NCBI RefSeq assembly: GCF_000190315.1
Contig: NC_015151.1
Span: 310,001 to 374,000, forward strand
Source of the DNA: Vulcanisaeta moutnovskia 768-28
GTDB taxonomy: Archaea; Thermoproteota; Thermoprotei; Thermoproteales; Thermocladiaceae
DNA length: 64,000 nucleotides
Direction of reading: 5' to 3'
A program made the position numbers and the translations under genes. The notes below the pieces were generated by a model. The model saw only the letters and a program-made list of their open reading frames with translations. It was not told where the DNA came from and did not search any database. The stretch's first letter is position 1. Each line of letters starts with the position of its first letter. Positions 4,869-29,801 of the stretch are shown one piece after another.

Positions 4869-6305
4869 TTATTCCCACGGATTATACAGCCAATCAATTA
4901 CGTACTTTAAAATAAGGTCTAGCTGGTCCTTAGGCAGAAACGCTGTTGCTCCATAGATGGGCGCCATGCCAGTTGTAGGTTGGCCCTTCTCTATGGCGTC
5001 CTTTATTGATTCACGTAAATCATTTATGAAGCTCTCTTTAACACCTGGTAAAGTGTGCCTATACGTGAGTGCTATATGGAATCCTGGTGGATTTATTAAA
5101 CCTATTAAGTGCCATCCTCTCTGTGCCATGTAATCCATTATGACGTAGGGATTTATGGAATCTGAGGATATGGCAATTATCCACAGTGGGTCACCAAGTA
5201 TCTTCAATTCACTTATTTTCTTAATCTCATTAATTATGTATTTACCGGTCTCAAGTATCTCCTTTGTTATTTTCATATAACCCTCCTCACCGAGATGGAG
5301 CATTACAGCCCATGTGGCGGCTATGGTAAAGCCAGGCTTACTACCCAGTGTTGTTGGTGTGAAGTAAATACCCCCAGTCCAGTCACCAATGGCATATACC
5401 TGATAACTAAATAACTCTGGGTCTCTATAAAGTATTACCGAGGAACCTTTAGGAGCATATCCGTATTTATGAGTATCTAAGTTAATCGAGGTCACCCCCT
5501 CTACGTCAAAGTCGAATTGTGGTATATCATAACCCAATTTTCGTGCGAATGGTAATATGAACCCTCCCAATGCAGCATCAACATGCATACTGATCCCATG
5601 ATCCATGGCTACCTCAGCCAACTCCTTAATGGGGTCTATAGTTCCATATGGAAAATTCGGCGCAGAACCTATGATTGCTATTGTGTTTTTCGTAATGGTG
5701 TTCTTAACCTTCTCCACATCAACCCTAAATTTATCATCAAGATCTACGATCTTCACCCTTATGTTAAAGTACTCGGCAGCCTTAAGGAAGGCTGCATGCG
5801 CAGATTTAGGAATAATTATTTCAGGCTCTATGATACCCTTCTTATGCCTATAGTAATCCCTATAGGTCTTCATTGCTAATAAAATGCTTTCAGTACCGCC
5901 CACAGTTATTGAACCTCTCACATTGCCGTCTCCATGAAGCATATTAGCGCACATGGCTACAACCTCACTCTCCAATTTAACTAAGCTTGGCCAAACGTCA
6001 GGATGCAATGGATTGGCAAGTGGATATATTGAAAAGACCTCCTCATATAAAGACACTAAATCATCACTCCCATTATAGACAGCACCCGATACTTTACCGT
6101 TTTTCCATGATTTATCTTCCTCAGATGCCATTTTTCTCAAAATAGAAAGTAATTCATCCCTACTAACTCCTTTGGATGGTAACGACCTAAATTCAGGAAA
6201 AGCCCCCTTATAGGGCTTGAATAATTTTCCTAACCCAGCCATAAGATTAGATATATCGGATAATGCCATTACTCTGAAATCTATTAATTTATTTAAAAAT
6301 ATCAT
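4869..6305 (-). CDS. Sphingosine-1-phosphate-lyase-like PLP-dependent lyase
   Basis: Group II PLP enzyme that resembles eukaryotic sphingosine-1-phosphate lyase more than the glutamate or tyrosine decarboxylases. Shared landmarks, by recall of the human enzyme, are SGAVYNG (73-79), ANPLHPDVWPSLVKLE (about 97-112), SITVGGTESI (132-141), KSAHAAFLKAAEYF, HVDAALGGF (241-249), THKYGYAPKGSS with the PLP lysine at about 280, and a C-terminal TTGMAPIYG. Family members cleave a phosphorylated long-chain or polyol amine between C2 and C3, giving phosphoethanolamine and an aldehyde. Archaea have no known sphingolipids, so the substrate is probably different. Two starts are possible (6305 and ATG at 6269). 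A TTTAAATA about 26 nt before 6305 favours the longer form. Confidence 0.85.
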   Translation of the reverse strand: MIFLNKLIDFRVMALSDISNLMAGLGKLFKPYKGAFPEFRSLPSKGVSRDELLSILRKMASEEDKSWKNGKVSGAVYNGSDDLVSLYEEVFSIYPLANPLHPDVWPSLVKLESEVVAMCANMLHGDGNVRGSITVGGTESILLAMKTYRDYYRHKKGIIEPEIIIPKSAHAAFLKAAEYFNIRVKIVDLDDKFRVDVEKVKNTITKNTIAIIGSAPNFPYGTIDPIKELAEVAMDHGISMHVDAALGGFILPFARKLGYDIPQFDFDVEGVTSINLDTHKYGYAPKGSSVILYRDPELFSYQVYAIGDWTGGIYFTPTTLGSKPGFTIAATWAVMLHLGEEGYMKITKEILETGKYIINEIKKISELKILGDPLWIIAISSDSINPYVIMDYMAQRGWHLIGLINPPGFHIALTYRHTLPGVKESFINDLRESIKDAIEKGQPTTGMAPIYGATAFLPKDQLDLILKYVIDWLYNPWE

Positions 6306-24559: not shown

Positions 24560-25471
24560 TTAAGTACGTATGTAATTAAGTACATCAAGGATTAATCTGA
24601 TTGTTGTGGGTAACGACATTAAACCAGGATCATTTGGTGGTGAGTACTCAACAATGTCAACGGCCTTAACCCTGGAATCACCGTAATCAAGAATAGCCTT
24701 AGTAATCCTCAAAAGCTCGCTATAACTAAGTCCAAAACCCTCTGGATTACCGACGCCAGGCATTACTGATGGATCAAGAACATCAACATCAATGCTCAGG
24801 TGGATCGAACCAGGATAACTATCAATGGCACCCCTCATGAGCAGTCTAAGTTCATGGTTATTCATGGACTTCACATCCCTAGTTGACAATAGTATGGAAT
24901 TTTCAAGTCTACTCACGAAATTCATCTCCTCCCTGTCATATGATCTAAACCCAAGGAAAACAATCAATTGAGGCTTAACCTGATTAATTAAGTGCCTCAC
25001 GAATGTTGCATGCGATAAGGATTGCCCTATCGGCCATTCCTCTCTTGAATCCAAGTGAGCATCAACATGTATGTAAATGCCATATGAACCCTGGGATTCT
25101 CTAACCGCCTTAGCAACACCAAGACTTAGTGTATGTTCACCACCTATATTGATTACCCTACCCCACGTACTAATAGCGTCCCTAACAACTAGATTAATCC
25201 TCTCCAAATTCCTGTCAATCATACCCTGCAGTAATGATAAATCACCCAAATCACAAATCTTATCAAGTGGATCTATACCCAGGTCCTCCGTAGGTGTAAA
25301 TTCAAAGTACTGACTCCAGGATCTAATGATGCTGGGTGCAAATCGTGTCCCAGGCCTAAAGCTAACGGTATCCTCCATGGGTATACCAAGTATTGGTATA
25401 CCACGGCCGCACCTAGGTGTTCCGAAAAGCGTGTATTGAGATGCAACGTAAAAATCAATGTTATTACCCAT
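24560..25471 (-). CDS. speB: Agmatinase/arginase-family ureohydrolase
   Basis: Binuclear manganese enzyme that hydrolyses a guanidino group, releasing urea. Metal ligands are visible as GGEH (first His), the HVDAHLDSRE motif (DAHxD) and SIDVDVLDPSVMPG (DxD). The PEGFGLSYSEL loop is typical of agmatinases. Agmatinase, making putrescine for polyamine synthesis, is the usual role in Crenarchaeota, but arginase or formiminoglutamase activity cannot be excluded. The ATG at 25471 overlaps the upstream stop by 8 nt; a TTG at 25489 is a weaker start. It is coupled to a NifX-like gene. Confidence 0.85.
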   Translation of the reverse strand: MGNNIDFYVASQYTLFGTPRCGRGIPILGIPMEDTVSFRPGTRFAPSIIRSWSQYFEFTPTEDLGIDPLDKICDLGDLSLLQGMIDRNLERINLVVRDAISTWGRVINIGGEHTLSLGVAKAVRESQGSYGIYIHVDAHLDSREEWPIGQSLSHATFVRHLINQVKPQLIVFLGFRSYDREEMNFVSRLENSILLSTRDVKSMNNHELRLLMRGAIDSYPGSIHLSIDVDVLDPSVMPGVGNPEGFGLSYSELLRITKAILDYGDSRVKAVDIVEYSPPNDPGLMSLPTTIRLILDVLNYIRT

Positions 25472-25874
25472 GGAAAATCGCCTCCTCAATCCTCTCCTTA
25501 ATAGCTAAAAAACTTGAATACATAACTTCCCAAATACTAACCTTATAATAATTATTATCAGGATCACTGTTAATTTTATCACCAGGTCTAACCACATAAA
25601 CGTCAACACCAGATCTCCTAAGTATTAAATATGAAGGATAACATAGTGAACCATGAGGAGCTAGTACAATTGTTGCGCCAAGCTCGACACACCTCCTAGC
25701 AACTGTTGGTCTTTTATTCGTAGAATTCAGAGCTGGATTAACCTCCTTATGAACCACAACACCATTTTTCACCAGGACTAAATAACGAGCCCTAGAAAAT
25801 AAGTTAAACGATAAATCCTCATTAACCGTAGTGCACACAATATTATGTTCTCTTTTCATTAATACCAATGACAT
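25464..25874 (-). CDS. NifX/NifB C-terminal-like protein (dinitrogenase iron-molybdenum cofactor fold)
   Basis: A 136-aa soluble protein with the layout of the NifX-like fold: an N-terminal strand and VNEDLSFNLFSRARYLVLVKNG, a KEVNPAL loop, RRCVELGATIVLAPHGSLCYPSYLILRRSGVDVYVVRPG. Such small proteins bind Fe-S clusters or metal cofactors in archaea that do not fix nitrogen. The two or three cysteines are not in a classic cluster motif. It overlaps the ureohydrolase by 8 nt and must be co-transcribed, though no functional link is obvious. Start ATG 25874, or 25859. Confidence 0.55.
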   Translation of the reverse strand: MSLVLMKREHNIVCTTVNEDLSFNLFSRARYLVLVKNGVVVHKEVNPALNSTNKRPTVARRCVELGATIVLAPHGSLCYPSYLILRRSGVDVYVVRPGDKINSDPDNNYYKVSIWEVMYSSFLAIKERIEEAIFHG

Positions 25875-25966
25875 GCCCCAACACAGCCTTTAAAAGCATT
25901 CAGAACAAGTCGTAAAGGTCTCCTCATAAAATAAGTAATACGCATGGATTACTTTACGAAAATCTA

Positions 25967-25974
25967 TTTAAATA
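25967..25974 (+). promoter_or_regulatory. TATA box preceding the inverted-repeat element
   Basis: TTTAAATA is centred 26 nt before 25997, the first paired base of the hairpin. On the other strand CATAAATAAAA (around 26118-26128) is placed similarly relative to 26100. Both strands therefore have a plausible promoter for the element. Confidence 0.4.
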
Positions 25975-25996
25975 AAACAGGCAATAACCACATAGA

Positions 25997-26100
25997 GCCT
26001 ATACCTGCCTTGCATTCACGTCATTAGTACGAGGCCCAACGACCCGGCCAAAACCGGGCCGCTGAGCCCCGTACTAATGGTGTGGATGCATGCAGGGGGC
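25997..26100. ncRNA. 104-nt imperfect inverted repeat, probable structured RNA
   Basis: Almost the whole segment folds into one long hairpin. Pairs run 25997-26000 with 26097-26100, 26004-26008 with 26092-26096, 26011-26021 with 26080-26090, and CATTAGTACG (26022-26031) with CGTACTAATG (26070-26079). The stem continues through GGC/GCC to a CCCGG/CCGGG stem closed by the six-base loop CCAAAA. The mismatches are mainly A.C and G.T, the kind that leave one strand's RNA paired. The G+C content is well above the AT-rich flanks and a TATA box is correctly placed. It has no tRNA, RNase P, SRP or H/ACA features I can identify. A small hairpin transposable element (MITE) is the main alternative. Confidence 0.5.
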
Positions 26101-26146
26101 AAATCCTTAATTATTTGTTTTATTTATGAGAATATAGAATAAAGGG

Positions 26147-26155
26147 TTTATAAAA
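26147..26155 (+). promoter_or_regulatory. TATA box of the por operon
   Basis: TTTATAAAA lies about 33 nt before the ATG at 26184. With the usual 25-27 nt spacing the transcript would begin within about 7 nt of the start codon. Confidence 0.5.
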
Positions 26156-26183
26156 GGCATCTATATCGATATTTTGACCGAAT

Positions 26184-26744
26184 ATGAGTGGTTCGGCCAT
26201 TGAAATAACGTTTTTCGGCAGGGGAGGCCAGGGTGCTGTGACTGCTGCGCAGATTATTGCCCAGGCCGCCATTAGGCGTGGCTTATTTGCAAGTTCGTTT
26301 CCTGAATACGGTGCTGAGCGTAGAGGCGCACCCGTTAGGGCTTATGTTAGGTTATCTCGAGAACCTGTTCTCGCTAGAGAACCAATTGATAAACCAGATA
26401 TTTCAGTGGTGTTTGATACGAGGTTATTGAATGTTTTTAATATACCGCAGATAACGAAGAATTATATAATTATTAATGCGTTGAGTGTTGATGATGCTAG
26501 GCAGTCCATAGGTAAGTTCAGTGGTAAGGTTGTTTATGTGAATGCATATGAGATATCCACTAAGCATCTGGGTAAACCAATAGTGAATACCACAATGCTT
26601 GGTGCATTACTTAAGGTGCTTGACCTGGTAGATATAGAGACCGTTAAGAACTTGGTCCTAGAGACGTTCGGCAAGAAGCTTGGTAAATCAAATGTGGAAG
26701 CGCTGGAAGAAGCTTATAAGGTGGCTGAGGTGATCGTACTATGA
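26184..26744 (+). CDS. porG: 2-oxoacid:ferredoxin oxidoreductase, gamma subunit
   Basis: First gene of a four-subunit pyruvate (or other 2-oxoacid):ferredoxin oxidoreductase. The N-terminus EITFFGRGGQGAVTAAQIIAQAA is the gamma-domain signature, followed by FPEYGAERRGAPVRAYVR. Length of 186 aa is standard. In the complex it helps bind coenzyme A. The next gene begins 4 nt before its stop, so translation is coupled. Whether the substrate is pyruvate, 2-oxoisovalerate or another 2-oxoacid cannot be read from this subunit. Confidence 0.93.
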   Translation: MSGSAIEITFFGRGGQGAVTAAQIIAQAAIRRGLFASSFPEYGAERRGAPVRAYVRLSREPVLAREPIDKPDISVVFDTRLLNVFNIPQITKNYIIINALSVDDARQSIGKFSGKVVYVNAYEISTKHLGKPIVNTTMLGALLKVLDLVDIETVKNLVLETFGKKLGKSNVEALEEAYKVAEVIVL

Positions 26745-29701: not shown

Positions 29702-29801
29702 GCCGGGGTGGCCGAGCTAGGTCCAAGGCGCGGGACTCGAGAATAACGGGCCATCCCGTCCCCGCAAGGGGGCCCGGGTTCAAATCCCGGCCCCGGCACC
29801 A
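29702..29801 (+). tRNA. tRNA-Ser(CGA) with an 11-nt intron
   Basis: Acceptor GCCGGGG/CCCCGGC, a long variable arm (CCCC-GCAA-GGGG) and a CCGGG-TTCAAAT-CCCGG T arm define a class II tRNA. The anticodon stem CGGGA/TCCCG encloses CTCGAG plus an insertion. Removing AATAACGGGCC (29742-29752) after position 37 gives the loop CTCGAGA with anticodon CGA (serine). In the precursor CTCG can pair with CGGG of the intron, leaving AGA and CCA as three-base bulges, the bulge-helix-bulge recognised by tRNA endonuclease. The discriminator base is A and CCA is encoded. A is unexpected for serine tRNAs, which usually have G. Confidence 0.88.

What the first reader, a model, noticed from the sequence alone, without database searches (positions are those of the whole stretch)
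25997..26100. A 104-nt GC-rich inverted repeat with TATA boxes at the expected distance on both sides
The whole element folds into one hairpin (10-bp perfect core at 26022-26031/26070-26079, CCCGG/CCGGG near the tip, loop CCAAAA). TATA boxes lie about 26 nt from each end. Its mismatches are A.C or G.T, so each strand's RNA has a different set of G.U pairs. It stands alone between two operons and matches no ncRNA class that I know. It could be a new structured RNA, a bidirectional pair of RNAs, or a MITE.
Basis: partly seen in the sequence, partly recalled or inferred. Interest (0 to 1): 0.72.

Follow-up and report, generated by a model that had tools for sequence, protein, structure and literature searches.

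The report
Archaeal hairpin RNA with antisense partner
The hairpin is a previously undescribed small RNA gene of the heat-loving archaeon Vulcanisaeta and its close relatives, and a second small RNA encoded elsewhere in the genome has co-evolved to pair with it, which suggests an RNA that is itself controlled by another RNA.

Summary
The inverted repeat is real (RNA fold z = -7.6) and is a conserved non-coding RNA gene, not a MITE. It is read on the + strand (about 25995-26104, identical unit 25997-26113) from a conserved BRE/TATA at 25952-25972. An identical copy lies 1.08 Mb away. Copies occur in 18 of 25 genomes of the family (9 of 9 high-quality ones), none found outside it, with compensatory changes and wobble pairs (37 G.U against 1 A.C in the basal helix) that name the + strand. 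Rfam has no match.

The unexpected part lies outside the window. A second locus (genome 932 kb) encodes a ~55-65-nt RNA ('C') with its own conserved TATA: a 20-24-nt 5' tail, then a GC hairpin. The tail is antisense to the hairpin RNA's 3' arm and co-varies with it between distant loci. Of 40,320 re-pairings of eight species the true one is uniquely best. I predicted C in one genome from its hairpin RNA alone and found it at the syntenic site; a held-out genome had C adjacent. Predicted complexes are 5-25 kcal/mol more stable than the separate RNAs.

Best reading: a two-RNA switch in which C invades the hairpin's base. Targets and expression are unknown.

The parts
25952..25972 (+). Promoter of the hairpin RNA: BRE/TATA block CTTTACGAAAATCTATTTAAA, TATA at 25965-25972, about 27 nt before the RNA start
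   Evidence: Same block (CTTTACRAAAATCTATTTWAA) upstream of the por-side copies in g1 genomes and upstream of the copy in G011, and a related block (CTTTACAGAAYCTAATTAAA) in g4, although the surrounding genes differ
25995..26104 (+). Hairpin RNA, copy A (best CM match 25995-26104). The stretch identical with copy B is 25997-26113, probably the transcript with its T-rich 3' end
   Evidence: R1 match 101.5 bits, E 5.5e-26 (the window sequence is in the model); 117-nt 100% identity with G000:C1:1414817-1414933; compensatory pairs
25997..26025 (+). 5' arm of the basal helix; it pairs in cis with the 3' arm and would be displaced by RNA C
   Evidence: Folds; alignment A2
26001..26003 (+). 3-nt bulge A-N-A (AUA here) between C-G pairs; both A's are invariant in all aligned copies
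   Evidence: Invariant columns A7 and A9 in A2, A4 and A5
26026..26078 (+). Apical hairpin, fast-evolving in sequence and length (RNAs of 84-112 nt), kept by compensatory changes; replaced in g2/g4 by a GAAA.../...AAGUA internal loop plus a short hairpin
26079..26101 (+). 3' arm GGUGUGGAUGCAUGCAGGGGGCA: pairs with the 5' arm in cis and with the 5' tail of RNA C in trans
   Evidence: C tail at G000:C1:932176-932198 (- strand) is its reverse complement with one G.U
26118..26128 (-).
   Evidence: Absent at copy B and not at a conserved distance in orthologues
26147..26157 (+). Separate TATA box of the downstream POR operon (first gene starts at 26184); argues that the hairpin is not the operon's leader
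   Evidence: GGGTTTATAAAAG conserved in locus-A orthologues; POR family match PF01558

Best explanation
The element is a single-hairpin non-coding RNA (here 'H'), made from the + strand by its own promoter and kept in two identical copies in this genome. It works as one half of a two-RNA system. A second, trans-encoded small RNA ('C', about 55-65 nt: a 5' tail GCCCCYUGCAUGCAYCCACRCC plus a GC-rich hairpin) is antisense to the 3' arm of H. C starts on the G5/C5 end, invades the basal helix, displaces the 5' arm with its A-N-A bulge, and forms a 20-25-bp duplex flanked by the hairpins of C and H (a three-way junction). Shown here by comparison: the two RNA genes, their structures, the strand of each, and selection for C:H pairing. 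Inferred: that C antagonises H by destroying the conserved basal helix. Unknown: what H does (protein binding at the A-N-A bulge, or targets bound by a freed arm).
For: Structure: 96% of cells pair against 30-43% in slid controls; 19 cells changed on both sides, shuffle mean 7.2, 0 of 500 reach it; same trend on the divergent set. Strand of H: conserved BRE/TATA at two unrelated flanks, and G.U 37 against A.C 1 in the basal helix. C: a conserved TATA block (ACCAATACTAATAAATTAA in g1) about 30 nt upstream, a hairpin of changing sequence but kept pairing, a U-run after it in most g2/g4 genomes. Pairing: the trans duplex is -44.4 to -57.9 kcal/mol; the true species pairing is the single best of 40,320 permutations of eight species. 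Predictions met: C in G011, searched with G011's own H arm, found at 1 mismatch (G.U-compatible) and at the syntenic site beside the metallophosphoesterase gene; G020, found only by model R2, has C about 150 nt upstream with 20 nt of perfect antisense. In G017/G020 the arm changed to GCGGAGCUACAUGGGGG and C changed with it, while the cis pairing got worse. Complex more stable than the separate RNAs in 16 of 16 genomes, by 4.7-24.9 kcal/mol at 37 C and 6.8-19.3 at 80 C.
Against: No transcript data were available, so both RNAs rest on comparison only. Most g1 C loci were found through similarity to the 3' arm, so their complementarity is partly by construction; the independent cases are G011 (synteny), G014, G017, G020 and G021. 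Related species are not independent, so 1 of 40,320 is not a strict p-value. The hairpin of H is itself very stable, and energies at 80 C are extrapolated. Antagonism is not distinguished from an obligate complex. In g1, C has no clear U-run after its hairpin. The apical helix of H keeps two A.C mismatches on the + strand.
Confidence: 0.72

Rival explanations
1. H and C are two halves of one working ribonucleoprotein (an obligate duplex, as U4/U6 or a guide-tracr pair are), not a regulator and its antagonist.
For: In g2 and g4 the two genes sit in tandem on one strand 100-160 nt apart. Complementarity is long, near-perfect and kept even where the cis hairpin decays (G017).
Against: H alone has a strongly conserved cis helix with an invariant A-N-A bulge that the duplex destroys. 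H has two or three copies in most g1 genomes and C has one.
Confidence: 0.25
2. C is only the 3' end or terminator of a protein gene, and its likeness to the H arm is a leftover of duplication or gene conversion, without RNA pairing.
For: In g1 the C hairpin abuts the stop codon of the metallophosphoesterase gene, so it may also serve as that gene's terminator.
Against: In g2 and g4 C lies in another place, beside H, with its own TATA and mostly a U-run. The likeness stops at the 20-24 nt that pair, too short for plausible conversion, and differences between C and H are mostly G.U-compatible.
Confidence: 0.08
3. The motif is a double-stranded DNA site (for instance for an origin-binding or regulatory protein), inverted at H and single at C.
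For: The arm contains the DNA palindrome TGCATGCA, and there are only 2-4 sites per genome.
Against: The sequence changes beyond recognition in G011 and G017/G020 while complementarity is kept. Basal-helix changes follow RNA wobble rules on one strand. The apical helix co-varies.
Confidence: 0.05
4. A MITE or other mobile inverted repeat.
For: Two identical copies in one genome; three in G008.
Against: Positions are conserved in g1 (upstream of the POR operon, upstream of a phosphoribosyltransferase gene). Copies are mostly 96-100% alike within genomes but 78-95% between species at the same locus, which is concerted evolution, not transposition. No viral, phage or plasmid match.
Confidence: 0.02

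Closest known systems
CJnc190 / CJnc180 of Campylobacter jejuni (sRNA and its RNA antagonist; PMC8687705)
   Same: A small RNA with a long intramolecular duplex, and a second small RNA that is antisense to it and antagonises it
   Different: There the antagonist is cis-encoded on the opposite strand and RNase III processes both; here C is trans-encoded, over 480 kb away in this genome, in archaea, and the function is not tested
Bacterial anti-sRNAs / RNA sponges acting on sRNAs
   Same: A base-pairing RNA whose target is another small RNA
   Different: Sponges mostly use short seeds (general knowledge); here 20-25 continuous pairs cover the whole arm of a hairpin. No sequence relation known
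RNAI/RNAII and CopA/CopT plasmid antisense pairs (from general knowledge)
   Same: Structured target RNA remodelled by a small antisense hairpin RNA
   Different: Those are cis-encoded plasmid copy controls; H has no conserved reading frame that I could see and no plasmid match
Archaeal intergenic sRNAs such as Methanosarcina sRNA154 (PMC5867862)
   Same: Conserved, structured, trans-encoded archaeal small RNA of similar size
   Different: sRNA154 pairs with mRNAs; the only detected partner of H is another small RNA. No sequence or structure comparison made
Crenarchaeal H/ACA-like guide RNAs (PMC4652768)
   Same: Single-hairpin RNAs of Thermoproteales
   Different: No pseudouridylation pocket: the base is a continuous helix with one 3-nt bulge; no Rfam match

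Membership tests
Any curated RNA family (Rfam 15) | Match at or above the family's gathering score | tested here: not met
   Only two tRNAs in the window; at low threshold only mir-8515 (25 bits, cut-off 100) and sX6 (12.2, cut-off 40), i.e. generic long hairpins; no match for homologues in L086, L149, L158
sRNA / RNA-antagonist pair (as CJnc190/CJnc180) | Two separate RNA genes with long complementarity | tested here: met
   (genes inferred by comparison, not by transcripts)
sRNA / RNA-antagonist pair (as CJnc190/CJnc180) | Complementarity is under selection (co-variation between the two loci) | tested here: met
   Unique best permutation of 40,320; G001, G011, G017/G020, G021 changes followed by C; phylogenetic dependence not removed
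sRNA / RNA-antagonist pair (as CJnc190/CJnc180) | Both RNAs expressed; antagonist lowers activity of the sRNA; mRNA target known | not testable with these tools
   No transcript data or genetics; apart from two likely chance sites, only H and C match the arm at up to 2 mismatches
MITE | Many dispersed near-identical copies at variable positions | tested here: not met
   1-3 copies per genome at conserved loci
H/ACA(-like) guide RNA | Internal pseudouridylation pocket with two guide strands, k-turn, 3' ACA box | tested here: not met
   Consensus fold is a continuous helix with a 3-nt one-sided bulge; no Rfam H/ACA match
cis-regulatory leader of the POR operon | Hairpin lies in the operon's 5' UTR and stays with that gene | tested here: not met
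   POR has its own TATA downstream of the hairpin; identical copy B precedes an unrelated gene; in g2 the hairpin is convergent with a pyrophosphatase gene

The most novel reading that the evidence does not exclude
A dedicated two-RNA switch of an archaeal family in which the only conserved base-pairing partner of a structured RNA is a second, trans-encoded RNA, with the two genes co-evolving across separated loci by strand-exchange complementarity; the hairpin's other activity would be a new regulatory or RNP function.
Probability: 0.55. Interest if true: 0.85.

Novelty: new variant of a known kind. Interest (0 to 1): 0.74.

Why it matters
Few archaeal small RNAs have a known partner, and I found no description of this family in Rfam or in the papers searched. 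Here the partner is given by co-variation alone: a hairpin RNA and a separate antisense RNA that track each other over three genera, even where the sequence changes completely. That makes a concrete test possible (probe one with the other) of RNA-on-RNA control in hyperthermophiles, where, from general knowledge, RNase III- and Hfq-based sRNA systems are not established. It also shows two unlinked RNA genes kept nearly identical within a genome (concerted evolution).

Tried and rejected
MITE or mobile repeat: rejected by copy number, fixed positions, and no viral, phage or plasmid match. Bidirectional transcription at this locus: no conserved - strand promoter. Leader of the POR operon: own TATA for POR; copy B in front of a different gene. 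Known ncRNA: no Rfam family. Homologues outside the family: none with R1 in 81 class genomes or with R2 in 45 order genomes; stricter filters were used there, so distant relatives could be missed. Other near-matches of the arm (G007:810369, G001 C132:6226, G011:292091) were read as chance and not followed further. Literature: no Vulcanisaeta/Caldivirga small-RNA study in the held library; the Pyrobaculum small-RNA paper (doi 10.3389/fmicb.2012.00231) is not held under that id.

Full report
1. The observation. The inverted repeat is present as described (arms 26011-26047/26054-26090, loop CCAAAA) and folds far better than shuffled sequence (-65.2 kcal/mol on +, z -7.6; -75.0 on -, z -9.9). The helix continues below the reported core to 25997-26000/26097-26100, with an AUA bulge at 26001-26003 and a small CU/U mismatch at 26009-26010.

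2. Copies. The window lies at 310001-374000 of a 2,298,983-base chromosome. A second copy, 100% identical over 117 nt (window 25997-26113), lies at 1414817-1414933, with unrelated flanks. The genus relatives (Vulcanisaeta, named by matching contig lengths to titled records: JCM 16159, JCM 14467, V. distributa JCM 11216, UBA163 and others; G007's length is that published for V. distributa IC-017T, PMC3035369) carry one to three copies. Locus A lies upstream of the POR operon, locus B upstream of a phosphoribosyltransferase gene. Within a genome the copies are 96-100% alike (89% in G010); between species at the same locus they are 78-95% alike, apart from the closely related pair G002/G003. So the two unlinked genes evolve in concert. 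The stretch kept identical in G000 begins where the RNA should begin and ends in the T-rich 3' flank, which fits a transcription unit.

3. It is an RNA. Over 12 aligned copies 96% of paired cells keep a standard pair (30-43% when the partner is slid by one to three columns), with 19 both-side changes against 7.2 expected from shuffles; a more divergent set shows the same trend. The basal helix varies through G.U on the + strand (37 cells) and almost never through A.C (1 cell), which is the reverse of what a - strand RNA would show. The apical helix keeps two A.C mismatches on the + strand, so it does not share that polarity. The + strand has a BRE/TATA block conserved at locus A, in G011 and, in related form, in g4, and a different good TATA at locus B, each about 27-31 nt before GAGCC. 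Rfam has no matching family.

4. Distribution. Covariance model R1 finds the RNA in 17 of 25 genomes of the family, 9 of 9 that are at least 90% complete, and in no other of 81 class genomes. Model R2 adds G020 (18 of 25) and still finds nothing in the sister families. Genera g2 and g4 (probably Caldivirga and Thermocladium; G012 has the size I remember for C. maquilingensis) have shorter apical parts with a GAAA.../...AAGUA internal loop, which looks like a loop-E module (my reading, not tested). The invariant core in all is GCCYANACC...GGGGG.

5. The partner. The 3' arm sequence also occurs once more per genome, next to a GC-rich hairpin. In g1 this lies at the 3' end of a metallophosphoesterase gene (G000: 932176-932198). 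Read on the opposite strand it is a small RNA gene, C: a conserved block ACCAATACTAATAAATTAA, then about 20-25 nt, then GCCCCYUGCAUGCAYCCACRCC, then a hairpin whose sequence changes between species but whose pairing is kept. In g2 and g4 C lies 100-160 nt upstream of H on the same strand, with its own TATA and usually a U-run after its hairpin. The 5' tail of C is antisense to the 3' arm of H.

6. Co-variation between loci. The tail of C follows the arm of H: GGC/GGU in the g1 species, GAAUGC in G001, GUGUGC in G021, and in G017/G020 the quite different GCGGAGCUACAUGGGGG. For eight species the true pairing has the lowest summed duplex energy of all 40,320 permutations; this ignores relatedness. 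Two checks were made as predictions. From the H arm of G011 alone I searched seven genomes; G011 gave H itself, one further site with a single G.U-compatible mismatch, and one site with three mismatches that I read as chance. The second is at the syntenic place beside the metallophosphoesterase gene, with the conserved promoter block and a hairpin. G020, not used in either model, has C about 150 nt upstream of H with 20 nt of perfect antisense. Caveat: most g1 C loci were collected by likeness to the arm, so only the syntenic and adjacent cases are independent evidence.

7. How it may work. The C:H duplex (-44 to -58 kcal/mol, 20-25 pairs) is stronger than the cis 5' arm:3' arm duplex (-30 to -49) in every genome, and the predicted complex gains 4.7-24.9 kcal/mol at 37 C and 6.8-19.3 at 80 C over the separate RNAs. 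In the predicted complex of G000 and G011 the C hairpin and the apical hairpin of H flank the duplex and the 5' arm is expelled. I therefore propose a strand-exchange switch, with C most likely an antagonist of H because it destroys the invariant A-N-A-bulged base. Shown: both gene families, structures, strands, and selection on pairing, all by comparison. Inferred: invasion and antagonism. Unknown: the activity of H and the conditions of expression. An obligate H:C complex is the main rival.

8. Comparison with what is known. It works like sRNA/antagonist pairs such as CJnc190/CJnc180 (PMC8687705), but is trans-encoded, archaeal and not known to be related in sequence. I found no description of it in the library searched; the library is incomplete and the Pyrobaculum small-RNA study could not be read.

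Noticed in passing
window 29702-29801 (+): tRNA gene that ARAGORN calls with a four-base anticodon (cgag) and no assignment, and Rfam calls tRNA over 97 nt: possibly a tRNA gene with an unusual intron.
   Followed up: no
L047 (G005 C12, 5017-5128) and L048 (G005 C41, contig end): In this metagenome assembly the hairpin RNA joins a locus-B upstream flank to a locus-A downstream flank, and another contig ends inside locus A: either assembly collapse at identical copies or real recombination between them.
   Followed up: partly
L053 (G008 C11, 6000-6099): A third copy of the hairpin RNA in G008 at a site that I saw in no other genome.
   Followed up: no
L040 (G010 second copy, 6025-6133): Copy B of G010 has drifted (11 differences from copy A, two broken basal pairs), possibly a decaying copy that has escaped homogenisation.
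   Followed up: no
g2/g4 copies, e.g. L086 1501-1584: Conserved internal loop GAAA / AAGUA above the basal helix looks like a loop-E (sarcin-ricin) module, absent in Vulcanisaeta copies, where a plain helix stands instead.
   Followed up: no
window 25464-25874 (-): 136-aa protein upstream of the arginase-family gene without any Pfam match.
   Followed up: no
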